From: Kiritimatiellota bacterium
GTDB lineage: Bacteria; Verrucomicrobiota; Kiritimatiellia; RFP12; UBA1067
Direction: 5' to 3'
Assembly (NCBI GenBank): GCA_009778475.1
Contig: WRJS01000004.1
Coordinates: 1 to 61,606, forward strand
DNA: 61,606 nucleotides
Made by a program: the position numbers and the translations under genes. The notes beneath the pieces were generated by a model. The model searched no databases. It worked only from the letters and a program-made list of their open reading frames with translations, and was not told where the DNA came from. Positions 976 through 22,591 of the stretch are shown here, piece after piece (within the stretch, counting starts at the first letter, position 1; each line of letters starts with the position of its first letter).

Positions 976-1076
976 ATCGCCCCTCTCAAATCCATTTTAA
1001 CGGATTCGGTTAGTATGCCACAAACGGAAGAGGATGTATAGCGTGTTTTTGGAGGAACATCCTAGGATTCTGTGAA

Positions 1077-1098
1077 GGCTCTTGTCTAGTTAAGGATT
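1077..1098. repeat. Left terminal inverted repeat of the IS
   Basis: 22 bp, perfectly inverted relative to 1769-1790. The outer end is GGCTC and the inner end GGATT, after which the two sides diverge. Confidence 0.95.
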
Positions 1099-1750
1099 AA
1101 ATTTGTAACACATTTTTGCATAGGATGTCAAACAAATCCTGCCCCTTGTTATTGAACCTGAACTCACACTCCTTGAGGTACAGCACGAACCTCGCCGAGG
1201 CGATGCCGTTGAACTTCGCCAGCCGCCGCTTGGCGTAGCTCCAGAAGCTCTCGATGCCGTTGACGTGGCACTTGCCCCGCGCGAACTCGTCCCGCGAGTG
1301 GAACACCCTGTAGTGGTCGTAGCCGTTCAGGATCAGCCCGTCGTACGCGCCCCACCCGTCGGTGTAGACCGTCGCGTTTTCCAGTATCCTGCCTTGGATA
1401 ATGGGCATCAGCTCCTCTTTGGAGCAGCTTCTGACGACGGTCAGGAACACCTGCCCGCCCCGCTTCAGCACGCCGAACACGGGCGTCTTGCCCGCCGCGC
1501 CGCGCCCCCGTTTCCCGCGAACCCTCCTCGCCCCGAAGTAGCTCTCGTCAAGCTCTATCTCCCCGGCAAAGGGCATCAGCGCCTGATGCTGGTACTCCAG
1601 GATGCGCTCGCGGAAAAGGGTGAAATAACGTTCCGCCGTGTGCCGGTTGTATCCCAGCAGCAGCGCCGTCTTGCCCGCCGTGATGTCCACGCAAAAGCAC
1701 ATCAGAATTTTTTTCACCCTGTACCTGCTTAATCGCCAACGTTTTTGCAT
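1097..1750 (-). CDS. IS1595-family transposase (ISXO2-like, IS1016 group)
   Basis: 217 residues. The N-terminal part (to about residue 55) is a helix-turn-helix-like segment with TAGKTALLLGYNRHTAERYF. The ISXO2-like catalytic domain follows: first aspartate D68 in IELDESYFG, second aspartate D131 in VYTDGWGAY, and the third site around N164/E167 in HVNGIESFW with K174 in the following YAKRRL. The N-terminal zinc ribbon of longer IS1595 members is absent, and the short length fits the IS1016 group. The stop codon overlaps the inner end of the left inverted repeat, as is usual for compact elements. All catalytic residues are present, so the enzyme is probably active. Confidence 0.93.
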   Translation of the reverse strand: MQKRWRLSRYRVKKILMCFCVDITAGKTALLLGYNRHTAERYFTLFRERILEYQHQALMPFAGEIELDESYFGARRVRGKRGRGAAGKTPVFGVLKRGGQVFLTVVRSCSKEELMPIIQGRILENATVYTDGWGAYDGLILNGYDHYRVFHSRDEFARGKCHVNGIESFWSYAKRRLAKFNGIASARFVLYLKECEFRFNNKGQDLFDILCKNVLQI

Positions 1751-1768
1751 AGTTTAAGGATACTCCAA

Positions 1769-1790
1769 AATCCTTAACTAGACAAGAGCC
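1769..1790. repeat. Right terminal inverted repeat of the IS
   Basis: 22 bp, perfectly inverted relative to 1077-1098; the transposase start codon is 19 bp inside it. Confidence 0.95.
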
Positions 1791-1794
1791 TCTG

Positions 1795-1840
1795 TGAAAT
1801 ACAAATTTCACTGGAGGGCGAGCGTCCTCCATCGTGAAAT
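1795..1840 (-). terminator. Hairpin terminator after the helicase-nuclease gene
   Basis: Just past the helicase stop (reading leftward) a stem pairs ATTTCAC plus TGGAGG with CCTCCA plus GTGAAAT around an 8-nt loop, followed by TTTGTATTT. The tail overlaps the IS target duplication, so the IS inserted beside this terminator. The GGAGGGCGAG arm is shared with a dispersed palindrome family seen near 26270 and 35600. Confidence 0.6.
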
Positions 1841-1857
1841 CTGTATTTTGCAGGACA

Positions 1858-4800
1858 CTAGATGTCGTCCGTGAAGGCGGCGGCGGTGGGGGAAAGGTCT
1901 TTCAGCTTGCGGCTCGGGGTTGTCTCGACGCTCCGGATGAAGTCCGCAAGGCGCGCCGCCTCCCGGCCGGGGTTGCGCCACCAGTTGGTGCTCCAGACGC
2001 GGTGGAACACGAAGCCGTAATTCTCCAGCATCTTTTTCCGGTGCAGGTCGTAGAGGTAGGCCTCGCGGCAGGAATGGTGCTTTGCGCCGTCGCACTCGAT
2101 GGCGACCTTCGGCACGCCTCTCGTTTGGGGGTCGTAGGCGACATCGATTTTGAACCCGGCGAACTGGAGGTGCGGCGTGAGCTTGTCCGCGCCGAGATGC
2201 GCGGCGAGGCCGCGGTAAACTTCCGCTTCAAACGGCGCCGCGTGTTTTTCCGCGTCGCCCGGCCCGAGCGCGGCCATGGCGGATGCGTTCTCCGCGAGCG
2301 CGGCAAGGACGGCCTGGCGCGAGGCGTCGTCCGAGCCGCTGGTGGCCTTGCAGTAGGCGAGGTAGGCGTAGAGCACGGCCCGTTTGTTGTTGGCGCCTTC
2401 CGCCGCCAGATGCTCCTTGTAGCCGAGGAATACCTGCTCGGGTATGGAGGTGCAGCAATAGACCTTATACTTCGCCCGCGTGACGATCACGTTCAGCAGC
2501 TTGTAGCCTTTGGAGTGGTTGATCGGCCCGAAGCGCTGGGCGAACTTCCCGTCCTTCCCCGGCCCGTAGGTCGTCGAGAGGATGATGACGTCGCGCTCGT
2601 CGCCTTGGATGTTCTCCAGGTTTTTCACGAACAGCCCGTTCTCTTCCATCTCCTGTATCTTGGCGTTGAAGTCCGCGTACGCCGGGGATTTCTGGCGGTT
2701 CAGGATTTTCCCTTTGATCAGGTTGCGTTGCGCGATGTTGAACGTGGCGATGCCGACCGAGGGGTATTTCCCGCTTGGCAGGCGGTGGATGTTCTTTTCA
2801 AGGATCGACAGCACCGAGTCGGCCTCCGCTTCGTTGGCGTGGTCAACGAAAATCCCGTTCACGGGGATGTATTTGACGGGGACGTAATCGAAGGTGCTGG
2901 GGAGCGGGCTCAGCCGCTGGTTGTAAAACGCGTGGTTGGAGAAGTCAATCAGGTACGGGTGGCGCGAACGGTAATGGAAGTCCAGGTGCTGCTTGGTGAA
3001 TTTCAGCTCCAGTCCGAAATCGAGCAGGGACTCGCAGGAGAGCAGGATGTCGTCCTTGTCGATCTTCACTTGGTCGGGCTCTTCCTCGTCCAGGTCGTCC
3101 TCGTCCTCGACCGCGCCGTCGAACACCTTGCTGAAATAGTTGGAGGGCGGCATCTGGTGCTCGTCGCCGGCGATGACGACCTGCTTGCCTTTGAGGATGG
3201 CGGGGAGGTTGTCTTCGATGCGCAGCTGGCTGGCCTCGTCGAACATCACGATGTCGAAGTACCGGTTCATCCCCTTGAACAGGTTGCTCGCGACATCCGG
3301 CGAGGTCAGTATAACCGGGAAGAACGTCGAGAACAGGCCGGGGTCTGCCTGAACCATCTGCCGCAGCGAGAGGCGCTTGAAGCGGTGGCTGCTCCGTTTG
3401 TTGTACAGGTTCTCCACGGTCACGCCGTTGTGCTTCTGCTCGAACTCCCGCGCGGCGTCGATCTGCTTCGAGAACCAAAAGTCCCTGATGAATTTCAGCT
3501 GCTTCTTCCCGATGTCGCCGAGCGCGGCCTCGAGCTGCTGATGCTCCTCGTCGTTTGTCGGCAGGTCCGTTGTGGCGGTGCTGACCAGCAATGCGTTCAG
3601 GTAGAAAATCAAAAACGTTTTCCGCCAGTCCGCCTTTGCCTTTAACGCGTCCACGACGGTCCGCTCGGGTTCCGACAGCCCGTTGTAGAACTGGAGCCAT
3701 CTGAACTCAACCGTGAAGAGGTCTTTGTCCGCGTTGAAATAACCGCGCTTGGCGTTGATGGCGGCCTCCACGGCGTTGACGAGCGCGCGGAAATCCGTTG
3801 CTTTCAGCGCATCCTTCTGCCAGCCGTCCGCATTGGCCTTGGCCTGCAAATCGCCGGCCGCCTTTTGGAGCGCCGGGAGGCTTTTCAATGCGAGCGTGCC
3901 GGGATTGACCCCGAGCAGGTTCATCTGCTGAAACTCGCTTTGGATTTTCGCGTCGAACCCGCTTTTGACGCCATCCATGCCGGCCATCACGGACGCCAAG
4001 GAATTGTGCCTCGCTTCGAGCTTGCCGGTGAACGCAAAGGCATCAAGGTCCTTCGCGCGTTTCAGGTGGTTTTCGAGTTTCAGGAAATCGCCTTGCAACG
4101 CCAGATAGTTGGCGCGGTTCTGCTTCTTGGCCTTTGAGAAGAGCGACTGGAGCAGATAACCGAAACCCGCAATCTTCGCTTCGTCGGCAAAATCCGGCTC
4201 ATCCCTTGCGGTGTCCCAGACGGCGTCTATCCGCGCCTTCATCTGGCGGGCCGCTTCAATCTGCTGATTGAGCTCGTCCTGCCGCAGGGCAACATACTCG
4301 CCCCTGACGACCTCTTCCAGCGCCCTCATCTGCTCAAGCTGTTTTGCGTAACAATCAAAATCGTCGTGTATGGCCTGCTCGATGGCGTAGGGGTTGTCCC
4401 CGGCCAGCTTTCGGGGATTGAGGAACGACATGTTTTCAATCGGCAGGAAGTCCGCATACAGCGGCTGGCCTTTCCGCACAAGGTCGAGGAGCCCGCTTAA
4501 CTCTTGCGCGGAATAGGTGAACGCATGTTTCCCGATGCTTAATGCGCAGTCATCCGCATTCGTCTTCAGCTCCGCCAGCAGGTCCCCCACGACATCCGTC
4601 CACGACTTCCCGCCGAGCAGCGGCTGCGCGAGTTTCCGGTGCCTGGCGTTGATGCTCGTGATGAGGGCTTCCGCCTTCCTGACGATGTTGTCCAGCGGCG
4701 TCTTCGAATACGTGTAGCGCTGCCTCCTGTACTCCGCGTTGTCGATGCGCCCCCGCACGGAATCCACGACCGCCCTGCGGTCCTTCACGATGTCCCGGAT

Positions 4801-5907
4801 CAAGACGCAATGGGTGTCCAGCCCTTTCTCGGCGAGGGCGCTGTGCAGCACCTCGAGCGCGGTGCGCTTCTCGCAGACGACGATCGTCCGCTTGTTGTTC
4901 TCCAGCGCGTTGATGAGGACGGCCGTGAGCGTCTGGCTTTTCCCCGTCCCCGGCGGCCCTTGGATGAGGATGTTCCGCGCGGTCTCCAGCGCATGGAGGA
5001 TGCTCTGCTGCGAGGGGTCCGTCTCCACGGACGAAATCGGCTGGAACGAATGCCCCGCCAAATCATCCAGCGGGAGGTCAGCCGCCGTGAGCGCCATGAG
5101 GCCGTCGTAATCGTCGATGATGTTCTGCTTCTGCACCTCGAAAATCGAGAACAGCCCCGCAAACTCGATGAACGCGTTCGCCGAGTTTGCGAGGAGCCTT
5201 TCGTAATGCGCCTTGTCGCCGATGGGGGCAACGCGCTCCAGCTGCTGCCTGAACGTCCCCGCCAGGTCCTCGGGCGACGTGGTGTTCAGCGTCCTGACGA
5301 GCTTGGCGCAGATTTCGACCAGCTCCTCCTTGCTGATCAGGCCGTCATCCAGCATCTCCCCCGGTATCGGCTCGATCTCCACGCTCAACTCGCTTTGCAG
5401 GTGGTTGACCAGGACCTCGTTGATGTAGATGGGGTCATCCTCGTTCCGCAGGATCTCCCACGTGTTGAACTCGCGCGTCGGCCTGATCCGCAAGCTCCAG
5501 ATCAGGACCGGCGCGACCGCCAGCTTGTTGTCCGCCGTGTCGCGCCGCGCGAGGATGGGGAACCCGAACCCGAACGTGTTGATGCCCTTCTCGGACTCGA
5601 TCGCCTCGGTCTGGTTGATGAGCTCCTCGAACGCCTTGGTGATCTTGACCAGATGGGACTGCTCCTCCTTGGGCAGCGCGCTCAGGTCCGGGACGTTACC
5701 CTTCCACGTGACCTTGAATTTCAGCGGCTGCTCCGAGAGCAACGCGTTGATGAACTTGGCGGGCAGCCCCTCGTCGATGTGAGAGAGCCTGTTCAGGTCG
5801 AACTTGTAGCGCGAGTTGGCAGGGATGGCGTTCAGGTGCACGCCCCTGCGGTTGCCGATTTTCAGCCGCTTCTGAAGTTCCGCCAACAGTTTCCCAGTCA
5901 ATAGCAT
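1858..5907 (-). CDS. Superfamily 1 helicase fused to a C-terminal PD-(D/E)XK/Vsr-like nuclease
   Basis: 1349 residues from the chosen start. Walker A is GPPGTGKS near residue 315, followed by VVCEKRTALEVL (motif Ia). Walker B is FDEASQ near 885, then IAGDEHQMPPS (motif III). Motifs IV-VI are near 1050-1150 (IQGDERDVIILSTTYG, NVIVTRAK). The AAA_11/AAA_12 halves are separated by a long, probably coiled-coil insert. The last 120 residues have FKIDVAY and AIECDGAKHH, the D...ExD core of MTES_1575/Vsr-like nucleases. Helicase-Vsr single proteins are known in phage defence, so this is a defence candidate (inference). The frame is open up to 6036, but 5907 is preferred: GGGGA lies 8 nt upstream, while the region above 5998 is a remnant of another gene. 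5934 is the alternative start. Confidence 0.88.
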   Translation of the reverse strand: MLLTGKLLAELQKRLKIGNRRGVHLNAIPANSRYKFDLNRLSHIDEGLPAKFINALLSEQPLKFKVTWKGNVPDLSALPKEEQSHLVKITKAFEELINQTEAIESEKGINTFGFGFPILARRDTADNKLAVAPVLIWSLRIRPTREFNTWEILRNEDDPIYINEVLVNHLQSELSVEIEPIPGEMLDDGLISKEELVEICAKLVRTLNTTSPEDLAGTFRQQLERVAPIGDKAHYERLLANSANAFIEFAGLFSIFEVQKQNIIDDYDGLMALTAADLPLDDLAGHSFQPISSVETDPSQQSILHALETARNILIQGPPGTGKSQTLTAVLINALENNKRTIVVCEKRTALEVLHSALAEKGLDTHCVLIRDIVKDRRAVVDSVRGRIDNAEYRRQRYTYSKTPLDNIVRKAEALITSINARHRKLAQPLLGGKSWTDVVGDLLAELKTNADDCALSIGKHAFTYSAQELSGLLDLVRKGQPLYADFLPIENMSFLNPRKLAGDNPYAIEQAIHDDFDCYAKQLEQMRALEEVVRGEYVALRQDELNQQIEAARQMKARIDAVWDTARDEPDFADEAKIAGFGYLLQSLFSKAKKQNRANYLALQGDFLKLENHLKRAKDLDAFAFTGKLEARHNSLASVMAGMDGVKSGFDAKIQSEFQQMNLLGVNPGTLALKSLPALQKAAGDLQAKANADGWQKDALKATDFRALVNAVEAAINAKRGYFNADKDLFTVEFRWLQFYNGLSEPERTVVDALKAKADWRKTFLIFYLNALLVSTATTDLPTNDEEHQQLEAALGDIGKKQLKFIRDFWFSKQIDAAREFEQKHNGVTVENLYNKRSSHRFKRLSLRQMVQADPGLFSTFFPVILTSPDVASNLFKGMNRYFDIVMFDEASQLRIEDNLPAILKGKQVVIAGDEHQMPPSNYFSKVFDGAVEDEDDLDEEEPDQVKIDKDDILLSCESLLDFGLELKFTKQHLDFHYRSRHPYLIDFSNHAFYNQRLSPLPSTFDYVPVKYIPVNGIFVDHANEAEADSVLSILEKNIHRLPSGKYPSVGIATFNIAQRNLIKGKILNRQKSPAYADFNAKIQEMEENGLFVKNLENIQGDERDVIILSTTYGPGKDGKFAQRFGPINHSKGYKLLNVIVTRAKYKVYCCTSIPEQVFLGYKEHLAAEGANNKRAVLYAYLAYCKATSGSDDASRQAVLAALAENASAMAALGPGDAEKHAAPFEAEVYRGLAAHLGADKLTPHLQFAGFKIDVAYDPQTRGVPKVAIECDGAKHHSCREAYLYDLHRKKMLENYGFVFHRVWSTNWWRNPGREAARLADFIRSVETTPSRKLKDLSPTAAAFTDDI

Positions 5908-5998
5908 ATCCGAAATCCCCAAGAGTTGATGCATCAATATACCGCAAGGCAGGTCACGCGCACAAGGACAAAAGAAACCGCGCACGGCAAAGGCGTGG

Positions 5999-6058
5999 CT
6001 CGCCGCCAACGCCACCAACATGGCGTGGGCGCTCACCCTGCCGACTCCCGACTCCTGA
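5999..6058 (+). pseudogene. Remnant of an array C-terminal module (last 20 codons)
   Basis: The translation LAANATNMAWALTLPTPDS with a stop at 6056-6058 matches the 3' end of the orphan module at 14388-14447. The rest of the module is missing: homology stops abruptly at about 5997, where helicase upstream DNA begins. This marks the left edge of repeat copy A and shows that the array once extended further or was cut here. Confidence 0.7.
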
Positions 6059-6396
6059 CTCCGAAATGCCCCCTGAAAAATGTGCTTGCATTTCCTTCGG
6101 GGGCAGTGTATCTTTTACACCCTCGCCTCTTTTAAGGCGGGGGCGTAGCGCGGGGCCGGGGGCCATGCTTGCCGTTGTGTTTCAGGTTGTGCATCGCTGT
6201 GTATTGTCGCAGAGTCGGAATAGCCAAGTTGGCGCTTTTTTGAGTGCCTACCATTTTTGATGCGGGAGTATATGGGATGCGCCGCGCTATGTGGCGTATT
6301 CTGTGTCATGTGTTAATAGAGTTTTGGCTAACTCCGATTCTGCATGTGTGAGTATGCCACTTATGGTGAGTGGCGCGTAAAAAAACGGGAGGGGTT
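6059..6396. other. Intergenic leader of repeat copy A
   Basis: No gene is seen. There is a hairpin with arms TGCCCCC (6067-6073) and GGGGGCA (6099-6105). A possible promoter overlaps it: TTGCAT at 6086-6091, 17-nt spacer, TATCTT at 6109-6114. A ribosome site GGGAGGGG precedes the ATG at 6397. The same sequence recurs at 14448-14785. Confidence 0.4.
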
Positions 6397-7254
6397 ATGG
6401 CGGAAAGGTTTATTGCAGTGGCGGAGTCGGTCGGGCGCGGGCTGGCGGTTGCGGGGTATGTGGTGGTGGCGGTCTCGCTGGCGGTGGCCTTCGCGGCGCG
6501 GCTGTGGGAGTCGGGGCTGGCGGGGGAGATGTGGCGGGAGTTCGTCGTGGCGGCGCGGAGGCGGGACGCGTGGGTGTGGGCGCTTATCACGGTGGGCCTG
6601 TCGCTGTGCGCGCAGAAGCGGGGCCCGGCGGAGTGGCTGGAGGAGTGGCGCGAAAGGGCGCAGGGCGGCGGGGCGCAAGCTGAGGGCGGGTTCCCCGGCG
6701 GGCCGCAGAGGGGCGGCGCCGAGGGCGGGGGGCGCGTGGTGTTCCAGTCGGGGGTGCCGCTGGCGGGGCCGCTGCCGGGCGTGGCGGTGCGGTGCGTGAT
6801 GCTCTCCTGCAACGGGGCGGCGGAGGACCTGGCGACGCTGCTGGACGCGCCGGAGGCCGCGCGGCTGAGGATGGCGGCGGAGGGCGGGCTGGAGCCTTGG
6901 ATGGACCCGGCGGAGGCGTCGCTGACGGGGCAGTTCGCGCTGCCGTCCTGGGGGCCTGAGATGTGGCGGGTGGTGACGGTTGACCTCGGGGGCGCCGTGC
7001 CGCTGGGCGACCTGCTCTTCGGGGACGCGGCGGGGCTCGGGGAGTGGGCGCGGCAGTGGCGGGGGGAGATCGCGGAGGCGGTGTTCTTCGACGACATCCC
7101 GGGCGACGGCGCGCGCGCGGGCGTGGCCAACTGGCTGGCGGCGCGGCGGGGCGCGGGGCGGCTCTACCCCGCGACGGCGGCCGAGCGCGGCGCGGCGATC
7201 GCGGCGGGCCTGAACTCCGGTGTTGACTGGGCGACGGTGATTATCGTAAGATAG
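6397..7254 (+). CDS. Membrane-anchored protein with a cryptic LamG/ConA-like domain (copy A)
   Basis: 285 residues. The start is an ATG 5 nt after GGGAGGGG; the frame is open to 6370 but lacks a site there. Two hydrophobic stretches (about residues 12-36 and 58-72) suggest an N-terminal membrane hairpin. Residues 85-115 are Gly-rich. The C-terminal part ends with WRGEIAEAVFFDDIPGDG and a VANWLAARRG helix, which resembles the closing strands of LamG/ConA-like domains, as also seen in the gene at 1-975. I know no named family. The next gene begins 8 nt downstream, so they are probably cotranscribed. It is identical to 14786-15643. Confidence 0.75.
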   Translation: MAERFIAVAESVGRGLAVAGYVVVAVSLAVAFAARLWESGLAGEMWREFVVAARRRDAWVWALITVGLSLCAQKRGPAEWLEEWRERAQGGGAQAEGGFPGGPQRGGAEGGGRVVFQSGVPLAGPLPGVAVRCVMLSCNGAAEDLATLLDAPEAARLRMAAEGGLEPWMDPAEASLTGQFALPSWGPEMWRVVTVDLGGAVPLGDLLFGDAAGLGEWARQWRGEIAEAVFFDDIPGDGARAGVANWLAARRGAGRLYPATAAERGAAIAAGLNSGVDWATVIIVR

Positions 7255-7262
7255 GGGGCGTG

Positions 7263-9545
7263 ATGAAGATGGAATATCCAATATCCAGCACGGAACATCC
7301 AATGTCCAAGTTGAATGCGCTCCGGGTGCGGCCCCGCGCCCGCGCCTCTCACCTTTTACCTTTCACCTCTCACCTTTTACCTTTTACATTTTACCTATTA
7401 CCTATCACCTATCACCTATTACTTCTCACCTGCTCCCTGCCGCCTCTGGCGGCCCTGGCGCAGGGCCTGCCGCAGTGGTACATCGACAAGGGCTGGCCCA
7501 CAGAGGACACCGTGGGCGACGGCATCCCGGACGAGTGGAAGCGGCGCACCTTCGCGCCGAGGGACGCGGACGGCAACTTCCTGCCGAGCGCGCACCTCGA
7601 CCGGGACAACGACGGCCTGACGGACCTGGAGGAGTTCTGGTACGGCAGCGACCCGCGCACCGCCTCGACCATGGGCGACTTCTGGCTCGACTCCGAGAAG
7701 CGCGCGCACGGCCTCGGCGCGTGGGGCAAGGTCACCTCGACCGTCTCCTTCGCGCAGTGGCAGGCGTGGTCCGGCCTTGACGAGGCCGCCTGGCGCCGCG
7801 CCACGCGCCCCTCCGCCGACGGCCTCACCGGCGCGTTCGCCGGCTTCGCCCTCAGCACCCAGCCCTACGCCGCCGAAGCGGGCACCGTGGACTTCTGGCT
7901 CGAGTACCGCGCCGACCGCCACACGCTCCTCACCCTCTCCGACGCGCTCGCGACGAACACGTTCCCGCTCGCCAAGGGCGAGGGCCGCGCGCGCCTGCGC
8001 GTCGCCTACGGCGGCCCCGCCGCGCTCACCATGGACCCCGCCCCCGGCACGCTCGCCGACACCCCCGGCGCCACCAACGGCCTGTGGCTCTGCGAGATGA
8101 AGGTCAAACCCTTCCGCCCCAACACCGTCGTATTCAACGACGGCGACACCCCGCCGCCCCCGCAAGGGGGTTTCGACAGCGTGGACGCCATCATCATCAC
8201 CGCCGCCCCCACCAACGCCGTCCACAGCCTCGAGCCCCCCGAGCCTACGCGCGACGGCCCGCCCACGCGCTGGCCCACCGTCACGCTCCTCCCCGGTTAC
8301 GTATCCCAAGGCGTGACCATGCTCAGCGACGGCTGGTACTGCGTCTCCGGCGACGCCTGCGGCGACTGCGCGTGGCCCACCAACGGCATGATCGAGGCCG
8401 CGGCCGGGATGCCCGCCAGCACCCTCGGCGCGACGCTTCCGGTCATCAGCAAGCAGGCCGCGTGGAATCTCCTCACGACGCCCGAGCTCAAATACGAGGT
8501 CACCGTCACCCAGAAGGTCTTCAGCGCGGGCTACCCGTCCCTCTTCGGCAGCTTCGCCTTCCGCGTCCGCCCCTGCGGCGCCCTCCACCACGGCCCCGAG
8601 GTGCGCGGCGCCGAGCACATCCTCAACCCCACCCACGAGCCCGGCCACTTCCCGACCACCACCTGCGGCGCCGCCGGGTGCCTCTGCTCCGGCGCGTCGC
8701 TCACCCACGTCGGCTTCGACCACGCCAAGGTCAACACGCGCAACCTCAACCACCCCGACGAGTCAGCGGAGGACAAGAAACATCTGCACTGCCTCGGCAT
8801 CATCTACAGCGGCAATACGACCAACCTGCTGGACTTCACCGAGAGTTTCGGGCTGGACATCACCAACCGCGTCAAGTGGGAGGTCAACGGGAAAACGCAG
8901 ACCGGACACACGCTGAAAATAGGCTCAGAACCCAAAGACCTCGACCCAAAAATTTTTCGCATTAAGCTACTGGAGAAAGAGTCGGGCGACGTGTGGGACA
9001 GGTTCATCCTCGTGGTCAACAACCGCAAGACGAAATCCGAATTCGATGGCTGGTATGACGGGAACAAAACGAACACGGCGTGGCTGGCGGAACTGCCTGC
9101 GGCGTATGTGGCGCTTTCGAACCGAGTCGGAAGCACGAGTTTCTATAACCCAGAGCCTTCGACTACAAATTTGTGGTGCGCTCCCGATGAGCCTGGACAA
9201 TATATGCACCATGCAGCAAAATGGCAAATGCGGTCAGAAAAAACACCCGGCAACCATGGACACCAGACATGCTATGATGACGCGGGGAAGATTATCCTTA
9301 ACGGGGTGAGCGCAGGAACGGCAGATTTTAGTTCTCCTAGATGGCATACCTTCAGACCACACGTCCGCGAAGATGTTGACCCCTTTGTCCGCGCCCTTCA
9401 ACTTGACGGAAACCCTTGTACTCGATCTTGGGACGCTCTGACTCATGCACTGATACATGACGGGGAAAACCTCGTCAAGTACCGTGAATGCCGTCCGGCA
9501 GTTCCCAACGATAAACCCATGTTAAATCCGGGGGAACTCCCGTAG
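7263..9545 (+). CDS. Large secreted array protein with C-terminal GHGHQ/RALQLDGNP-type module (copy A)
   Basis: 760 residues. The ATG at 7263 follows AGGGGG; a GTG at 7260 is the alternative. A hydrophobic region encoded by heptamer repeats (7351-7434) ends LAALAQ, a plausible signal-peptidase site. Acidic thrombospondin-type-3/dockerin-like segments follow (DGIPDEW, DRDNDGLTDLEEF, YGSDP), the usual start of secreted PVC proteins. The middle contains Cys-rich SDGWYCVSGDACGDCAW and VGFDHAKVNTRNL. The last 120 residues carry HHAAKWQMRS, NHGHQTCYDD, AGTADF, DVDPFVRALQLDGNP and YRECRP, shared with the orphan modules nearby. GC content drops visibly towards the 3' end. The histidines and aspartates could form a metal site, but no function is established. 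A toxin-like C-terminus is inferred only from the locus layout. Confidence 0.85.
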   Translation: MKMEYPISSTEHPMSKLNALRVRPRARASHLLPFTSHLLPFTFYLLPITYHLLLLTCSLPPLAALAQGLPQWYIDKGWPTEDTVGDGIPDEWKRRTFAPRDADGNFLPSAHLDRDNDGLTDLEEFWYGSDPRTASTMGDFWLDSEKRAHGLGAWGKVTSTVSFAQWQAWSGLDEAAWRRATRPSADGLTGAFAGFALSTQPYAAEAGTVDFWLEYRADRHTLLTLSDALATNTFPLAKGEGRARLRVAYGGPAALTMDPAPGTLADTPGATNGLWLCEMKVKPFRPNTVVFNDGDTPPPPQGGFDSVDAIIITAAPTNAVHSLEPPEPTRDGPPTRWPTVTLLPGYVSQGVTMLSDGWYCVSGDACGDCAWPTNGMIEAAAGMPASTLGATLPVISKQAAWNLLTTPELKYEVTVTQKVFSAGYPSLFGSFAFRVRPCGALHHGPEVRGAEHILNPTHEPGHFPTTTCGAAGCLCSGASLTHVGFDHAKVNTRNLNHPDESAEDKKHLHCLGIIYSGNTTNLLDFTESFGLDITNRVKWEVNGKTQTGHTLKIGSEPKDLDPKIFRIKLLEKESGDVWDRFILVVNNRKTKSEFDGWYDGNKTNTAWLAELPAAYVALSNRVGSTSFYNPEPSTTNLWCAPDEPGQYMHHAAKWQMRSEKTPGNHGHQTCYDDAGKIILNGVSAGTADFSSPRWHTFRPHVREDVDPFVRALQLDGNPCTRSWDALTHALIHDGENLVKYRECRPAVPNDKPMLNPGELP
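7351..7434 (+). repeat. Heptanucleotide array inside the signal-peptide coding region (copy A)
   Basis: Twelve consecutive 7-bp units, consensus ACCTWTY (for example ACCTTTT, ACCTATC). It lies wholly inside the gene at 7263 and encodes the hydrophobic LLPFT/YLLPI/HLL segment. Because 7 is not a multiple of 3, gain or loss of one unit would shift the frame. Confidence 0.9.
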
Positions 9546-9569
9546 CCATTGATGAGAAAGGAAATCACT

Positions 9570-10340
9570 ATGAAACGATTGATTATTCTGTTTTTGCTTT
9601 CGGCGCAATCTGTTTGGGGGCAGAACCCCGTGCCGGATTTGTCTTGGACGTTCCAGTGGGGGACAAATACGGCCGGGATGCTCTTTGAGGACGCCGCTTT
9701 GGCCATGCCGGTCAAAGCGGTCATACGGGATGACATCAAAAGGGTTTACCAGCTTAACCCGCAGTCAAACGCAACATTCCGTTTGTACTTGCCAAGTGAG
9801 GAGGAACATGGGAAATACACAGGCGTTTTCCAGTTCGAGAGGTCAATGGCTTGCCCGAAGGACATCCACAGTTTGGATTACTGCATCTATGGGGGGACGA
9901 ACTATTACGCCATTACGGAATCCATCAGCACTATCTATTCTGAAAAAATAGCATTGACGAACCAGCATCATGCGGCAATCGGGAGCCTTTCCAACTTCCT
10001 GCACACTGTCAACCATGTGTCGGTTGGCAATACCACGCCAGTGGAATTTGCTCAAATGTGGTGGCGGTTCAAGAAAGGACGCGCGGGCGCGTTGGCTGAT
10101 GACACTGTTGAGAGTTTTACGGAGGGCATCCAATCCATGAGCGAAGACCGTTACTATTGCTTGTCGTTGCTTTCGGTTTGGGAAAGGCCGCCGTCATATT
10201 GGAGTGTGCCTTCCGCAAAACCGCTTGTGGTGGGTTGCACCATAAAAGCACTACCCAGAGCTGGCAACGGCAACTCCGACGGGATAGAAATGGATGCCGT
10301 GTATAAGGATGGGCAATGGCGGTTTGTCGCATGGGAATAG
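9570..10340 (+). CDS. Small secreted partner protein, array family (copy A)
   Basis: 256 residues. The ATG at 9570 lies after AAAGGAAAT. Residues 1-18 are a signal peptide ending VWGQ. The N-terminal motif LFEDAALAMPVKAVIRDDI matches the FADTNLT..VKQRIADDL motif of the paralogues at 11197, 12050 and 12817. The C-terminus YKDGQWRFVAWE matches their FYKGKWGFG ending. It sits 24 nt after the large secreted gene and its end overlaps the start of the next module frame. By position it could be an immunity-like or chaperone-like partner, but no named family is recognised. It is identical to 17959-18729. Confidence 0.8.
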   Translation: MKRLIILFLLSAQSVWGQNPVPDLSWTFQWGTNTAGMLFEDAALAMPVKAVIRDDIKRVYQLNPQSNATFRLYLPSEEEHGKYTGVFQFERSMACPKDIHSLDYCIYGGTNYYAITESISTIYSEKIALTNQHHAAIGSLSNFLHTVNHVSVGNTTPVEFAQMWWRFKKGRAGALADDTVESFTEGIQSMSEDRYYCLSLLSVWERPPSYWSVPSAKPLVVGCTIKALPRAGNGNSDGIEMDAVYKDGQWRFVAWE

Positions 10341-11182
10341 AATATCGTCCCAGCCATGCGGAGGAGCAATACCAGAAAACGGAGCATTGCCTCGGCATCG
10401 TGTGGGGCAACGGCGGCTCAACGAACCTCTTCAACCTGCTCTGCACCGACGGCTTCACCGACGACATCCGCACCAACCTCTACTTCACCTCGCAGGTCAA
10501 CGCCAAGGGCGCGAAGGCCGAGGTCGCAAAACACACCCTGCCCTTCGGCGCGAAACCCAAGGACATGGACCCCCGCATTTTCCACGTCGAACTCCGCCAC
10601 CGAGGGAACCCCGGCGAGGTTTTTGACAGGCTGTGGGTTGCCGTCAACGCACCCGAGACACTGGCGAGTTATAACGCATGGGTCGCCGCCAACGCCACCA
10701 ACATGGCCTGGACGCTTACCCTGCCACAGGTGTTTGAATCGATAGAAATCAAGAACGGAGAGGCAGTCCGTCCTGAGCCAAACCGCCCGCGCCAATAGGT
10801 AACCCCGAAAAGACTCAATTCATTCCTCCACCATGATGCCTCATTTGATATACGATCGTATCCCGTGGGTGATGACCACGGGCATCAGGCGACATACGAT
10901 GCCCACGGCAACGTGATCAAAAAGGGCGTTGCCGCAGGGACGGCCGACCGTGTTTCGACGGTGAATGAGGCGGGGTTCTCTGTGCCGAGTTTGGGGCATC
11001 AGACCCAAGACGTGCAACCGTTCATCCGCGCGTTGCAACTGGACGGGAACCCGTGTTTGAGGAAAACCAAGAGTGGGTTCATAGCAGACATAACCCGCCC
11101 CATGATTTATCAAGGAACGAATCTTACCAATTACATCGAGTGTCGCCCTGTGAGTCCTACAGGAATGCGCCCGAGACCATAA
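10316..11182 (+). pseudogene. Orphan C-terminal module, interrupted by an in-frame stop
   Basis: Homology to the large protein and the module at 18705 starts just after the partner stop (SHAEEQYQKTEHCLGIVWG). It continues through KPKDMDPRIFHVELRHR and WVAANATNMAWTLTLP to a TAG at 10796-10798. In the same frame, similarity resumes at about 10826 (LHHDASFDIRS, GDDHGHQATYD, AGTADR, DVQPFIRALQLDGNP, YIECRP) and runs to the stop at 11180-11182. The linker before the TAG reads better in another frame, suggesting two compensating indels. It has no signal peptide. The first ATG (10316) lies inside the partner gene, so separate expression is doubtful. Confidence 0.75.
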
Positions 11183-13601: not shown

Positions 13602-14447
13602 ATGGGGGCTAAAACCGTGCTCGGCGGCGACGGCTGGTTCTGCATCTCCGACGCCTACTGCGTTTCGGGCTGCTGCGCGTGGCCCACCTACGGCATGATC
13701 GGATGCGACGCGCTCACCCTCTCCATGCACAACCTGCAACCGGCCGACCCCATCATGCCCAAGCAGGACGCGTGGCAGATATTCTGCGACCGCCAGCCCT
13801 GCGCCGAGTGCGTCATCACGCAGACGCTCAGCCACGCGGCCTTCCCCCCCATCTACAGCAAGGTCATCTTCCGCGTCCGCCAGTGCGGCGCGCTAAGCGA
13901 CGGCGTCCGCGGCGCGGAGAGCGACCCCGCCCACACCCCCGCCTACTACCCCCACGCCGCCTGCCACGGCATCCAGTGCGAATGCCTCGGCGCCCCCGTC
14001 TGGCTCGTCGGCTTCGACCACGCAAAGGTCAACACGCGCAACCTCTCCGTCATCGCCAGCCACGCGGAGGAACAATACCAAAACACGAGCCACTGCCTCG
14101 GCATCGTGTGGGGCGACGGCGGCTCGACGAACCTCTTCAACCTGCTCTGCACCGACGGCTTCACTGACGACATCCGCACCAACCTCTACTTCACCTCGCA
14201 GGTCAACGCCAAGGGAGCGAAGGCCGAAGTTCAAAACCACATCCTGCCCTTCGGCGCGAAACCAAAAGACATGGAGCCACGGATTTTCCACGTCGAGCTG
14301 CGCCACCGCGAGAAAGGCGCCAACGTCCTCGACAGGCTCTGGGTCACGGTCAACTCCCTCGAAACGCTCACGAATTACAACAACTGGGTCGCCGCCAACG
14401 CCACCAACATGGCGTGGGCGCTCACCCTGGCGCCCCCCGACTCCTGA
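13602..14447 (+). CDS. Orphan module lacking signal peptide and the final GHGHQ domain
   Basis: 281 residues from an ATG at 13602 (the frame is open to 13572, inside the previous gene). Homology to the large secreted protein begins at GGDGWFCISDAYCVSGCCAW and runs through FRVRQCGAL, VGFDHAKVNTRNL, HCLGIVWGDGGSTNLFNLLC, DMEPRIFHVELRHR to WVAANATNMAWALTLAPPDS, where it stops. The C-terminal GHGHQ domain is missing because repeat copy B starts right after the stop. There is no export signal and only a weak ribosome site. It may be a silent cassette or debris rather than an expressed protein. Confidence 0.55.
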   Translation: MGAKTVLGGDGWFCISDAYCVSGCCAWPTYGMIGCDALTLSMHNLQPADPIMPKQDAWQIFCDRQPCAECVITQTLSHAAFPPIYSKVIFRVRQCGALSDGVRGAESDPAHTPAYYPHAACHGIQCECLGAPVWLVGFDHAKVNTRNLSVIASHAEEQYQNTSHCLGIVWGDGGSTNLFNLLCTDGFTDDIRTNLYFTSQVNAKGAKAEVQNHILPFGAKPKDMEPRIFHVELRHREKGANVLDRLWVTVNSLETLTNYNNWVAANATNMAWALTLAPPDS

Positions 14448-14785
14448 CTCCGAAATGCCCCCTGAAAAATGTGCTTGCATTTCCTTCGGGGGCAGTGTAT
14501 CTTTTACACCCTCGCCTCTTTTAAGGCGGGGGCGTAGCGCGGGGCCGGGGGCCATGCTTGCCGTTGTGTTTCAGGTTGTGCATCGCTGTGTATTGTCGCA
14601 GAGTCGGAATAGCCAAGTTGGCGCTTTTTTGAGTGCCTACCATTTTTGATGCGGGAGTATATGGGATGCGCCGCGCTATGTGGCGTATTCTGTGTCATGT
14701 GTTAATAGAGTTTTGGCTAACTCCGATTCTGCATGTGTGAGTATGCCACTTATGGTGAGTGGCGCGTAAAAAAACGGGAGGGGTT

Positions 14786-15643
14786 ATGGCGGAAAGGTTT
14801 ATTGCAGTGGCGGAGTCGGTCGGGCGCGGGCTGGCGGTTGCGGGGTATGTGGTGGTGGCGGTCTCGCTGGCGGTGGCCTTCGCGGCGCGGCTGTGGGAGT
14901 CGGGGCTGGCGGGGGAGATGTGGCGGGAGTTCGTCGTGGCGGCGCGGAGGCGGGACGCGTGGGTGTGGGCGCTTATCACGGTGGGCCTGTCGCTGTGCGC
15001 GCAGAAGCGGGGCCCGGCGGAGTGGCTGGAGGAGTGGCGCGAAAGGGCGCAGGGCGGCGGGGCGCAAGCTGAGGGCGGGTTCCCCGGCGGGCCGCAGAGG
15101 GGCGGCGCCGAGGGCGGGGGGCGCGTGGTGTTCCAGTCGGGGGTGCCGCTGGCGGGGCCGCTGCCGGGCGTGGCGGTGCGGTGCGTGATGCTCTCCTGCA
15201 ACGGGGCGGCGGAGGACCTGGCGACGCTGCTGGACGCGCCGGAGGCCGCGCGGCTGAGGATGGCGGCGGAGGGCGGGCTGGAGCCTTGGATGGACCCGGC
15301 GGAGGCGTCGCTGACGGGGCAGTTCGCGCTGCCGTCCTGGGGGCCTGAGATGTGGCGGGTGGTGACGGTTGACCTCGGGGGCGCCGTGCCGCTGGGCGAC
15401 CTGCTCTTCGGGGACGCGGCGGGGCTCGGGGAGTGGGCGCGGCAGTGGCGGGGGGAGATCGCGGAGGCGGTGTTCTTCGACGACATCCCGGGCGACGGCG
15501 CGCGCGCGGGCGTGGCCAACTGGCTGGCGGCGCGGCGGGGCGCGGGGCGGCTCTACCCCGCGACGGCGGCCGAGCGCGGCGCGGCGATCGCGGCGGGCCT
15601 GAACTCCGGTGTTGACTGGGCGACGGTGATTATCGTAAGATAG
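14786..15643 (+). CDS. Membrane-anchored protein with a cryptic LamG/ConA-like domain (copy B)
   Basis: Identical to the protein at 6397-7254: N-terminal hydrophobic hairpin, Gly-rich linker and a ConA-like closing motif WRGEIAEAVFFDD. The ATG at 14786 follows GGGAGGGG. It lies 8 nt before the second copy of the large secreted gene, so cotranscription is likely. Upstream, the truncated orphan module ends at 14447. The perfect conservation could reflect recent duplication or ongoing conversion between copies. Confidence 0.75.
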   Translation: MAERFIAVAESVGRGLAVAGYVVVAVSLAVAFAARLWESGLAGEMWREFVVAARRRDAWVWALITVGLSLCAQKRGPAEWLEEWRERAQGGGAQAEGGFPGGPQRGGAEGGGRVVFQSGVPLAGPLPGVAVRCVMLSCNGAAEDLATLLDAPEAARLRMAAEGGLEPWMDPAEASLTGQFALPSWGPEMWRVVTVDLGGAVPLGDLLFGDAAGLGEWARQWRGEIAEAVFFDDIPGDGARAGVANWLAARRGAGRLYPATAAERGAAIAAGLNSGVDWATVIIVR

Positions 15644-15651
15644 GGGGCGTG

Positions 15652-17934
15652 ATGAAGATGGAATATCCAATATCCAGCACGGAACATCCAATGTCCAAGT
15701 TGAATGCGCTCCGGGTGCGGCCCCGCGCCCGCGCCTCTCACCTTTTACCTTTCACCTCTCACCTTTTACCTTTTACATTTTACCTATTACCTATCACCTA
15801 TCACCTATTACTTCTCACCTGCTCCCTGCCGCCTCTGGCGGCCCTGGCGCAGGGCCTGCCGCAGTGGTACATCGACAAGGGCTGGCCCACAGAGGACACC
15901 GTGGGCGACGGCATCCCGGACGAGTGGAAGCGGCGCACCTTCGCGCCGAGGGACGCGGACGGCAACTTCCTGCCGAGCGCGCACCTCGACCGGGACAACG
16001 ACGGCCTGACGGACCTGGAGGAGTTCTGGTACGGCAGCGACCCGCGCACCGCCTCGACCATGGGCGACTTCTGGCTCGACTCCGAGAAGCGCGCGCACGG
16101 CCTCGGCGCGTGGGGCAAGGTCACCTCGACCGTCTCCTTCGCGCAGTGGCAGGCGTGGTCCGGCCTTGACGAGGCCGCCTGGCGCCGCGCCACGCGCCCC
16201 TCCGCCGACGGCCTCACCGGCGCGTTCGCCGGCTTCGCCCTCAGCACCCAGCCCTACGCCGCCGAAGCGGGCACCGTGGACTTCTGGCTCGAGTACCGCG
16301 CCGACCGCCACACGCTCCTCACCCTCTCCGACGCGCTCGCGACGAACACGTTCCCGCTCGCCAAGGGCGAGGGCCGCGCGCGCCTGCGCGTCGCCTACGG
16401 CGGCCCCGCCGCGCTCACCATGGACCCCGCCCCCGGCACGCTCGCCGACACCCCCGGCGCCACCAACGGCCTGTGGCTCTGCGAGATGAAGGTCAAACCC
16501 TTCCGCCCCAACACCGTCGTATTCAACGACGGCGACACCCCGCCGCCCCCGCAAGGGGGTTTCGACAGCGTGGACGCCATCATCATCACCGCCGCCCCCA
16601 CCAACGCCGTCCACAGCCTCGAGCCCCCCGAGCCTACGCGCGACGGCCCGCCCACGCGCTGGCCCACCGTCACGCTCCTCCCCGGTTACGTATCCCAAGG
16701 CGTGACCATGCTCAGCGACGGCTGGTACTGCGTCTCCGGCGACGCCTGCGGCGACTGCGCGTGGCCCACCAACGGCATGATCGAGGCCGCGGCCGGGATG
16801 CCCGCCAGCACCCTCGGCGCGACGCTTCCGGTCATCAGCAAGCAGGCCGCGTGGAATCTCCTCACGACGCCCGAGCTCAAATACGAGGTCACCGTCACCC
16901 AGAAGGTCTTCAGCGCGGGCTACCCGTCCCTCTTCGGCAGCTTCGCCTTCCGCGTCCGCCCCTGCGGCGCCCTCCACCACGGCCCCGAGGTGCGCGGCGC
17001 CGAGCACATCCTCAACCCCACCCACGAGCCCGGCCACTTCCCGACCACCACCTGCGGCGCCGCCGGGTGCCTCTGCTCCGGCGCGTCGCTCACCCACGTC
17101 GGCTTCGACCACGCCAAGGTCAACACGCGCAACCTCAACCACCCCGACGAGTCAGCGGAGGACAAGAAACATCTGCACTGCCTCGGCATCATCTACAGCG
17201 GCAATACGACCAACCTGCTGGACTTCACCGAGAGTTTCGGGCTGGACATCACCAACCGCGTCAAGTGGGAGGTCAACGGGAAAACGCAGACCGGACACAC
17301 GCTGAAAATAGGCTCAGAACCCAAAGACCTCGACCCAAAAATTTTTCGCATTAAGCTACTGGAGAAAGAGTCGGGCGACGTGTGGGACAGGTTCATCCTC
17401 GTGGTCAACAACCGCAAGACGAAATCCGAATTCGATGGCTGGTATGACGGGAACAAAACGAACACGGCGTGGCTGGCGGAACTGCCTGCGGCGTATGTGG
17501 CGCTTTCGAACCGAGTCGGAAGCACGAGTTTCTATAACCCAGAGCCTTCGACTACAAATTTGTGGTGCGCTCCCGATGAGCCTGGACAATATATGCACCA
17601 TGCAGCAAAATGGCAAATGCGGTCAGAAAAAACACCCGGCAACCATGGACACCAGACATGCTATGATGACGCGGGGAAGATTATCCTTAACGGGGTGAGC
17701 GCAGGAACGGCAGATTTTAGTTCTCCTAGATGGCATACCTTCAGACCACACGTCCGCGAAGATGTTGACCCCTTTGTCCGCGCCCTTCAACTTGACGGAA
17801 ACCCTTGTACTCGATCTTGGGACGCTCTGACTCATGCACTGATACATGACGGGGAAAACCTCGTCAAGTACCGTGAATGCCGTCCGGCAGTTCCCAACGA
17901 TAAACCCATGTTAAATCCGGGGGAACTCCCGTAG
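15652..17934 (+). CDS. Large secreted array protein with C-terminal GHGHQ/RALQLDGNP-type module (copy B)
   Basis: 760 residues, identical to the protein at 7263-9545, including the heptamer-encoded signal peptide (15740-15823), the Ca-binding-like DRDNDGLTDLEEF segment and the C-terminal NHGHQ, AGTADF and DVDPFVRALQLDGNP motifs. Starts ATG 15652 or GTG 15649. The two copies would be free to exchange C-termini with the orphan modules by homologous recombination, since module DNA is shared between them. No function is assigned beyond predicted secretion. Confidence 0.85.
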   Translation: MKMEYPISSTEHPMSKLNALRVRPRARASHLLPFTSHLLPFTFYLLPITYHLLLLTCSLPPLAALAQGLPQWYIDKGWPTEDTVGDGIPDEWKRRTFAPRDADGNFLPSAHLDRDNDGLTDLEEFWYGSDPRTASTMGDFWLDSEKRAHGLGAWGKVTSTVSFAQWQAWSGLDEAAWRRATRPSADGLTGAFAGFALSTQPYAAEAGTVDFWLEYRADRHTLLTLSDALATNTFPLAKGEGRARLRVAYGGPAALTMDPAPGTLADTPGATNGLWLCEMKVKPFRPNTVVFNDGDTPPPPQGGFDSVDAIIITAAPTNAVHSLEPPEPTRDGPPTRWPTVTLLPGYVSQGVTMLSDGWYCVSGDACGDCAWPTNGMIEAAAGMPASTLGATLPVISKQAAWNLLTTPELKYEVTVTQKVFSAGYPSLFGSFAFRVRPCGALHHGPEVRGAEHILNPTHEPGHFPTTTCGAAGCLCSGASLTHVGFDHAKVNTRNLNHPDESAEDKKHLHCLGIIYSGNTTNLLDFTESFGLDITNRVKWEVNGKTQTGHTLKIGSEPKDLDPKIFRIKLLEKESGDVWDRFILVVNNRKTKSEFDGWYDGNKTNTAWLAELPAAYVALSNRVGSTSFYNPEPSTTNLWCAPDEPGQYMHHAAKWQMRSEKTPGNHGHQTCYDDAGKIILNGVSAGTADFSSPRWHTFRPHVREDVDPFVRALQLDGNPCTRSWDALTHALIHDGENLVKYRECRPAVPNDKPMLNPGELP
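15740..15823 (+). repeat. Heptanucleotide array inside the signal-peptide coding region (copy B)
   Basis: Twelve 7-bp units, the same units in the same order as 7351-7434. Equal unit number in both copies shows that no slippage has occurred since the duplication. Confidence 0.9.
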
Positions 17935-17958
17935 CCATTGATGAGAAAGGAAATCACT

Positions 17959-18729
17959 ATGAAACGATTGATTATTCTGTTTTTGCTTTCGGCGCAATCT
18001 GTTTGGGGGCAGAACCCCGTGCCGGATTTGTCTTGGACGTTCCAGTGGGGGACAAATACGGCCGGGATGCTCTTTGAGGACGCCGCTTTGGCCATGCCGG
18101 TCAAAGCGGTCATACGGGATGACATCAAAAGGGTTTACCAGCTTAACCCGCAGTCAAACGCAACATTCCGTTTGTACTTGCCAAGTGAGGAGGAACATGG
18201 GAAATACACAGGCGTTTTCCAGTTCGAGAGGTCAATGGCTTGCCCGAAGGACATCCACAGTTTGGATTACTGCATCTATGGGGGGACGAACTATTACGCC
18301 ATTACGGAATCCATCAGCACTATCTATTCTGAAAAAATAGCATTGACGAACCAGCATCATGCGGCAATCGGGAGCCTTTCCAACTTCCTGCACACTGTCA
18401 ACCATGTGTCGGTTGGCAATACCACGCCAGTGGAATTTGCTCAAATGTGGTGGCGGTTCAAGAAAGGACGCGCGGGCGCGTTGGCTGATGACACTGTTGA
18501 GAGTTTTACGGAGGGCATCCAATCCATGAGCGAAGACCGTTACTATTGCTTGTCGTTGCTTTCGGTTTGGGAAAGGCCGCCGTCATATTGGAGTGTGCCT
18601 TCCGCAAAACCGCTTGTGGTGGGTTGCACCATAAAAGCACTACCCAGAGCTGGCAACGGCAACTCCGACGGGATAGAAATGGATGCCGTGTATAAGGATG
18701 GGCAATGGCGGTTTGTCGCATGGGAATAG
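17959..18729 (+). CDS. Small secreted partner protein, array family (copy B)
   Basis: 256 residues, identical to 9570-10340: signal peptide, LFEDAALAMPVKAVIRDDI motif and YKDGQWRFVAWE end. A 3' fragment of a divergent homologue lies at 21624 and a 5' fragment at 22032. It ends inside the start of the following module frame. Confidence 0.8.
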   Translation: MKRLIILFLLSAQSVWGQNPVPDLSWTFQWGTNTAGMLFEDAALAMPVKAVIRDDIKRVYQLNPQSNATFRLYLPSEEEHGKYTGVFQFERSMACPKDIHSLDYCIYGGTNYYAITESISTIYSEKIALTNQHHAAIGSLSNFLHTVNHVSVGNTTPVEFAQMWWRFKKGRAGALADDTVESFTEGIQSMSEDRYYCLSLLSVWERPPSYWSVPSAKPLVVGCTIKALPRAGNGNSDGIEMDAVYKDGQWRFVAWE

Positions 18730-22369: not shown

Positions 22370-22497
22370 CATCATACAAAAGTGTTGCGGCTTTAGCCCT
22401 GATCACGCATCAATGAAAAGTCTTTTGGGGCGCTCGGGTTTCAGGACGGGTCATTTAATATTGCAATTTGCAACTTGCCCTGAGGGTCTGGATTTGT

Positions 22498-22527
22498 TTG
22501 ACATCCTGTGAGGAAATGTGTTATAAA
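22498..22527 (+). promoter_or_regulatory. Promoter for the oxidoreductase gene
   Basis: TTGACA at 22498-22503, 18-nt spacer, TATAAA at 22522-22527; about 60 nt of leader before the ATG at 22592. Confidence 0.6.
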
Positions 22528-22591
22528 TTTAACCTTTAACTGGAATATGAGCTTAACGCAGGGAATAAGCGGAAAACAGGAGGAGAGCAGG

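What the first reader, a model, noticed from the sequence alone, without database searches (positions are those of the whole stretch)
1858..5907. Helicase-nuclease gene beside a mobile element and a variable array
An SF1 helicase with a C-terminal Vsr/MTES_1575-like nuclease (ECDG core) resembles single-gene helicase-Vsr defence proteins. It lies between an IS and the putative effector array, a typical accessory-island position.
Basis: partly seen in the sequence, partly recalled or inferred. Interest (0 to 1): 0.5.

Follow-up and report, generated by a model that had tools for sequence, protein, structure and literature searches.

The report
Helicase-nuclease that lost its polymerase dock
This is a horizontally acquired bacterial gene for a nucleic-acid-unwinding enzyme fused to a DNA-cutting enzyme, probably an anti-virus protein; most of its close relatives carry an extra GreA-like end piece that in other proteins holds RNA polymerase, and this copy lacks it.

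Summary
In detail: 1858-5907 (minus strand) is an intact 1349-aa gene, a Upf1/Sen1-like SF1 helicase with a C-terminal Vsr-type MTES_1575 nuclease, beside an intact IS1595 element. It is accessory: full-length relatives (up to about 67% identity) occur in Bacteroidota, Ignavibacteriota and Cloacimonadota, but in none of 386 other genomes sampled from its own phylum. It scores far below the cut-offs of the anti-phage families Hhe and ProA; the best profile is PADLOC's candidate PDC-S37. Relatives have no fixed partner gene, and their neighbours include known defence genes.

New here: 55 of 64 relatives have a further C-terminal tail of at least 90 aa, and where checked it is a GreA/GreB C-terminal domain, the part that binds RNA polymerase in Gre factors. 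The window copy stops exactly before it. Its nuclease has drifted more than the rest of the protein, though proposed catalytic residues remain. The family also has a coiled-coil stalk that grows in paired repeat units.

Best reading: a stand-alone helicase-nuclease defence protein, docked on RNA polymerase in most relatives and undocked here. Defence and docking are inferred, not tested. A known kind, a new variant; ten literature searches returned no description of it.

The parts
1858..5907 (-). helicase-nuclease gene, 1349 aa plus stop codon
   Evidence: homologues cover residues 1-1349
5398..5646 (-). residues 88-170, DUF4011-like N-terminal region
   Evidence: Pfam 20.2 bits, below its cut-off 22.2, in the window; above cut-off in 6 of 6 relatives scanned
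4624..5016 (-). residues 298-428, first helicase domain (AAA_11) with Walker A at 317
3838..4392 (-). residues about 506-690, coiled-coil stalk inserted between helicase motifs Ia and II; one repeat unit here
   Evidence: predicted long helices; unit counts
3229..3240 (-). Walker B DEAS, residues 890-893
2458..2838 (-). residues 1024-1150, second helicase domain (AAA_12)
1936..2232 (-). residues 1226-1324, MTES_1575 Vsr-type nuclease
   Evidence: the same domain of relative L021 folds like I-Bth0305I, Z 12.4
1858..1861 (-). CTAG holding the stop codon; the gene ends here, one residue before relatives go on into the GreA-like tail
1066..1857 (-). dispersed hairpin repeat (MITE-like) directly after the stop, interrupted by the IS
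   Evidence: 112 terminal motifs and 117 hairpin cores in the genome, reversed-pattern controls 0
1077..1790 (-). IS1595-family element with 8-bp target duplications 1069-1076 and 1791-1798

Best explanation
A stand-alone, horizontally acquired helicase-nuclease of the DUF4011/SF1-helicase/Vsr-nuclease kind, most likely an anti-phage protein. Shown: a Upf1/Sen1-like SF1 motor, a long coiled-coil stalk and an EDxHD/Vsr-fold nuclease in one chain; scattered distribution; no constant partner gene; relatives with a GreA/GreB C-terminal tail, which this copy lacks. Inferred mechanism: the motor moves along single strands of invading (transcribed, replicating or damaged) nucleic acid and delivers the nuclease, which cuts. 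In most relatives the GreA-like tail docks the enzyme on RNA polymerase, so it acts at transcription complexes. The window copy has lost the dock and would act without RNA polymerase, or less well.
For: Domains and motifs. Helicase model resembles Upf1 (Z 17.3), Ighmbp2 (16.9), Sen1 bound to RNA polymerase II (15.4) and Dna2 (15.1); sequence hits SMUBP-2, Upf1/NAM7, Sen1. Nuclease model: I-Bth0305I Z 12.4, 3hrl 12.0. PDC-S37, Hhe and ProA profiles. Accessory distribution. No conserved neighbour: largest family in 7 of 64 loci. Nearest neighbours (104 of 200 ORFs scanned) match 71 PADLOC families; the 25 shown include type I RM, type IIG, Zorya, Dazbog, Tmt; 0 of 60 control neighbours of stand-alone greA match. 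Tail: 55 of 64 relatives; Pfam GreA_GreB over cut-off in 5 of 6 and in 29 of 30 host genomes; profile hits Gfh1 4e-7; fold Gfh1 Z 12.0, GreA 11.8. Review passages: the C-terminal globular domain of Gre-type factors is the RNA polymerase-binding part (PMC4598747). Window copy keeps 384 of 397 near-invariant residues.
Against: No experiment here or found in print for this subfamily. PDC-S37 is only a candidate family. Far neighbours (>6.5 kb) match as many PADLOC families (72) as near ones, so the gene is not shown to be at the centre of the islands, and the control has redundant, cut-off proteins. Window neighbours show no defence gene: 0 of 3 scanned. The lost tail and the drift of the nuclease (9 of 52 near-invariant positions changed against 10 of 392 elsewhere) could mean decay. 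That the tail binds RNA polymerase is inferred from fold and sequence; some FKBP folds unrelated to polymerase also match (Z 6-7).
Confidence: 0.6

Rival explanations
1. The window copy is a decaying remnant: an acquired defence gene that lost its C-terminal domain, its nuclease is drifting, and repeats and an IS are piling up at its 3' end.
For: Tail absent with no trace downstream and only one GreA_GreB match elsewhere in the genome, in a 720-aa open frame. Nuclease changes enriched 9/52 against 10/392, p 8e-5 for one sequence of 54. Repeat and IS right after the stop.
Against: A 4-kb frame without stop or frameshift; 384 of 397 near-invariant residues kept, tenth lowest of 56 but within the range of relatives; proposed catalytic residues E1227, D1255, E1271, D1273, H1278, D1287 all present; GC3 0.86 like host genes, so long resident. 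Two other relatives with cut tails exist (L035, L068), and L068 shows no nuclease drift (0 of 52).
Confidence: 0.25
2. It is a DNA-repair or RNA-metabolism helicase-nuclease (Dna2- or Sen1-like) and not a defence protein; in relatives the GreA tail couples it to backtracked RNA polymerase at collisions with replication.
For: Fold closest to Upf1, Sen1, Dna2; GreA-like tail.
Against: Patchy, cross-phylum distribution; kinship with Hhe and ProA; defence genes among neighbours of relatives.
Confidence: 0.15

Closest known systems
Hhe (NCBIfam NF042953; PADLOC Hhe)
   Same: DUF4011, SF1 helicase and MTES_1575/Vsr nuclease in one anti-phage protein; alignable over the second helicase half and nuclease
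   Different: Profiles are about 1800-1900 positions long; 354 bits against a cut-off of 2000; no stalk-repeat or GreA tail match seen
ProA (NCBIfam NF058533, 'anti-phage protein ProA')
   Same: Best NCBIfam profile, 432 bits over three stretches
   Different: Cut-off 1500 not reached; 1903-position model
PDC-S37 (PADLOC phage defence candidate, PDLC05009)
   Same: Best PADLOC profile for the window (447 bits) and for six relatives scanned (429-482 bits)
   Different: 1550-position model; the best stretch of the six relatives ends at or before position 1384, so the GreA tail is not covered; function untested as far as I know
MTES_1575-type giant proteins with SF1 helicase and Vsr nuclease (PMC3710099, passages read)
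   Same: Proposed to cut invading DNA without a modification partner
   Different: Those carry HEPN, transglutaminase and wHTH (DUF3320) domains; this family has a GreA-like tail where they have wHTH
Hachiman HamAB (PMC12278908, summary and passages read)
   Same: Sensor helicase that unleashes a nuclease
   Different: Two proteins, another helicase family; mechanism comparison only
Gfh1 / GreA / Rnk
   Same: C-terminal domain fold and sequence of the relatives' tail
   Different: Free small factors with their own coiled coil; here fused to a helicase-nuclease, and missing in the window copy

Membership tests
Hhe (NF042953) | curated whole-protein score of 2000 bits | tested here: not met
   353.6 bits
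ProA (NF058533) | curated whole-protein score of 1500 bits | tested here: not met
   432.2 bits
PDC-S37 (PADLOC) | match to PDLC05009 over most of its 1550 positions | tested here: inconclusive
   446.9 bits, best stretch 843-1346, two stretches; no cut-off shown
SF1 helicase, Upf1-like | AAA_11 and AAA_12 above gathering score, SF1 motifs, Upf1-like fold | tested here: met
MTES_1575 nuclease | PF18741 above gathering score with catalytic core | tested here: met
   75.9 bits, cut-off 38.2; core residues present
DUF4011 proteins | PF13195 above gathering score 22.2 | tested here: not met
   20.2 bits in the window; met in 6 of 6 relatives
GreA-tailed helicase-nuclease subfamily (named here) | PF01272 GreA_GreB domain at the C-terminus | tested here: not met
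   absent in the window; relatives 29 of 30 genomes over cut-off; window nests inside this clade
Anti-phage defence system | protection against phage | not testable with these tools
   needs experiment
IS1595 | NF033547 over cut-off, terminal inverted repeats, 8-bp target duplication | tested here: met
   157.9 bits, cut-off 75; ends read

The most novel reading that the evidence does not exclude
The relatives form an unrecognised transcription-coupled immune enzyme: a GreA-type tail rides on RNA polymerase, an adjustable-length coiled-coil stalk sets the reach, a Sen1/Upf1-like motor loads on the strand exposed at the polymerase, and a Vsr nuclease cuts actively transcribed invader DNA (or R-loops). 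The window protein is a natural tail-less, RNA polymerase-independent version.
Probability: 0.3. Interest if true: 0.8.

Novelty: new variant of a known kind. Interest (0 to 1): 0.5.

Why it matters
Helicase-nuclease proteins are a large class of bacterial defences whose trigger is often unknown. A GreA-type polymerase-binding domain fused to one suggests a trigger, the transcribing polymerase, that can be tested directly by deleting the tail. Nature already provides tail-bearing and tail-less forms (the window copy, L035, L068) for comparison. The stalk, which lengthens in paired units, gives a further handle on how the parts are spaced.

Tried and rejected
IS or repeat as the carrier or cutter of the gene: rejected. 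The IS has its own 8-bp target duplication, so it inserted separately. The hairpin repeat probably targets CTAG (25 of 35 copies listed are preceded by CT before the terminal AG; my note said 28, which counted only the T). CTAG lies at both flanks of the window copy, so the stop codon TAG probably existed before the repeat arrived. The far end of that repeat copy is degenerate, so this is likely and not proven.

The tail moved elsewhere in the genome: one GreA_GreB match only, on another contig, in a 720-aa open frame, so not found.

A phage carrier: viral contigs gave no relative; phages gave one distant record at 29.7% identity; plasmids gave 386 records, all under 60% identity, none covering 80% of the query. 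The best plasmid hit (Flammeovirga, 35.9%) ends about ten codons after the match, so it has no room for the tail.

A conserved partner gene: not found. Tail loss causing nuclease drift: not general, since tail-less L068 has 0 of 52 nuclease changes; L075, with a tail, has a weaker excess (20/57 against 94/421, p 0.046); one search prints only sequences with eight or more changes.

A consensus sigma-70 promoter upstream: none found in 5850-6300. The hairpin after the stop folds well as RNA (z -5.4) and could end transcripts, but it has no clear T-run and was not pursued. Host taxonomy was not established.

Literature (ten searches; open-access library only): no description of a GreA-tailed helicase-nuclease in the listings. 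searched 'grea' as a word start, so one search was swamped by 'great'. Gao et al. 2020, the source of Hhe as I recall, was not read. Papers listed but not opened were not used.
Full report
What is there. The minus-strand gene 5907..1858 encodes 1349 aa without interruption. Pfam finds AAA_11, AAA_12 and MTES_1575 above their cut-offs and DUF4011 just below. PADLOC ranks PDC-S37 first (4.6e-134) and Hhe second (1.4e-79). NCBIfam ranks ProA (432 bits, cut-off 1500) and Hhe (354 bits, cut-off 2000), neither reached. PDB sequence search finds only SMUBP-2, Upf1/NAM7, senataxin-like and Sen1 helicases, by the first helicase domain. An AlphaFold2 model of residues 255-1349 (mean pLDDT 73.9, pTM 0.43) is closest to Upf1 (Z 17.3), Ighmbp2 (16.9), Sen1 on RNA polymerase II (15.4) and Dna2 (15.1).

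Accessory status. The genome holds one copy. Of 58 other related genomes, 22 have any match at 1e-3, at 23-54% identity and in partial stretches of proteins that often run to 1900 aa. In 387 genomes drawn from the phylum only the window's own passes 1e-80. By contrast genome contigs returned 67 loci, most of them full length at 49-67% identity and most from Bacteroidota, with two Ignavibacteriota and one Cloacimonadota. A quick tree puts the window protein beside Parapedobacter (SH-aLRT 91) inside the Bacteroidota clade; it is a long branch with odd composition, so the exact place is unsure. Its GC3 (0.86) is like that of neighbouring genes, so the acquisition is old or came through a GC-rich donor.

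The missing tail. Of 64 relatives scoring over 350 bits (of 67 loci), 55 continue at least 90 residues beyond the point where the window protein stops; 9 do not: L035 (30 aa) and L068 (27 aa) are cut short, L065 has a gap of unknown bases but ends in the tail's last residues, L071 lies at a contig end, L074 ends after 5 residues, and L078, L079, L080 and L082 are more distant tail-less relatives. The tail is GreA_GreB C-term: above cut-off in 5 of 6 relatives scanned, L055 below. In 30 host genomes that I picked from full-length loci, the helicase-sized frame carries it in 30, 29 over the cut-off, and each genome also has a stand-alone greA-sized gene. A profile of 18 tails finds Gfh1 (4e-7), a GreA/Gfh1 chimera and weakly Rnk in the PDB. 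The model of the L021 C-terminus (pLDDT 74, tail 78-89) gives Gfh1 Z 12.0, GreA 11.8, Rnk 8.1, and for the nuclease I-Bth0305I 12.4. A review says that the C-terminal globular domain of these factors is responsible for binding RNA polymerase (PMC4598747, passages).

How the window copy ends. The last shared residues are AFTDDI; the next codon is TAG. Directly after it lies a copy of a dispersed hairpin repeat present about 112-117 times in the genome, itself split by the IS1595 element. Other copies show CTAG as the usual target (25 of 35), and CTAG flanks this copy on both sides, so the stop probably predates the repeat. No tail remnant lies beyond, and the genome's only other GreA_GreB match is on another contig.

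State of the protein. It keeps 384 of 397 near-invariant positions. With two fragmentary rows removed, changes at near-invariant positions are 9 of 52 in the nuclease and 10 of 392 elsewhere (odds ratio 8, p 8e-5, best of 54 rows looked at). The residues I take as catalytic (E1227, D1255, E1271, D1273, H1278, D1287; recalled from Vsr/EDxHD enzymes and their conservation) are intact. L068, also tail-less, shows no such drift, so a causal link is not established.

The stalk. Between motifs Ia and II lies a long predicted coiled coil. Relatives differ here by paired changes on both arms. Profiles of the rising (A) and returning (B) unit, built from 35 one-unit members, find none in five short forms (L059, L061, L063, L070, L073), one each in the window and one-unit forms, two of each in nine forms of 1603-1624 aa, and in L055 (1752 aa) two weak A and three B hits; L072 (1759 aa) shows only one of each. 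Order A-A-B-B means that a unit was nested into the tip or that both arms were duplicated separately.

Context. No neighbour family recurs in more than 7 of 64 loci. Nearest neighbours (104 of 200 ORFs) match 71 PADLOC families at 1e-15; the 25 shown include type I RM, type IIG, Zorya, Dazbog, Tmt and candidates. Far neighbours (80) match 72 families, including Avs2, Gabija and CBASS parts. Neighbours of stand-alone greA (60 of 126 ORFs) match none. The number of matching proteins is not printed, so no rate is given. In the window itself, the three array proteins scanned match no PADLOC family.

Mechanism and verdict. I read it as a stand-alone helicase-nuclease defence protein in which, for most relatives, a Gre-type tail brings the enzyme to RNA polymerase. 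The domains, folds, distribution and tail loss are shown; defence, docking and substrate are inferred. The kind (DUF4011/SF1/Vsr single-gene defence) is known, partly from the giant HEPN/Vsr proteins in PMC3710099 (passages); the GreA tail and unit-built stalk make this subfamily a new variant, as far as ten literature searches can tell.

Noticed in passing
window 5999-10605 and 14388-18994: A 4.6-kb stretch is repeated at a spacing of 8389 bases, with mismatches only at its left edge; its left end lies about 90 bases upstream of the helicase start, so the sequence beyond those 90 bases is array DNA.
   Followed up: partly
window 1066-1857; genome-wide: Dispersed MITE-like hairpin repeat with terminal TGTCCTGTAAAATACAG, likely CTAG target, 112-117 copies in the genome.
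   Followed up: partly
window 22483-22544: A 62-bp fragment, 84% like the 3' end of the IS1595 element, at the far side of the array; several other fragments elsewhere in the genome.
   Followed up: no
L048, L049, L050, L053, L056, L058, L064, L066, L069 (two units), L055 (about three): Coiled-coil stalk inside the helicase grows by paired, nested repeat units on both arms.
   Followed up: partly
G000:C109:11780-12001 (L098): The genome's only GreA_GreB domain lies in a 720-aa open frame, unlike the 160-200 aa greA genes of the Bacteroidota hosts.
   Followed up: no
L032 and L047: Identical helicase proteins with like neighbours in two genera (Flagellimonas, Allomuricauda), a recent transfer or a naming matter.
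   Followed up: no
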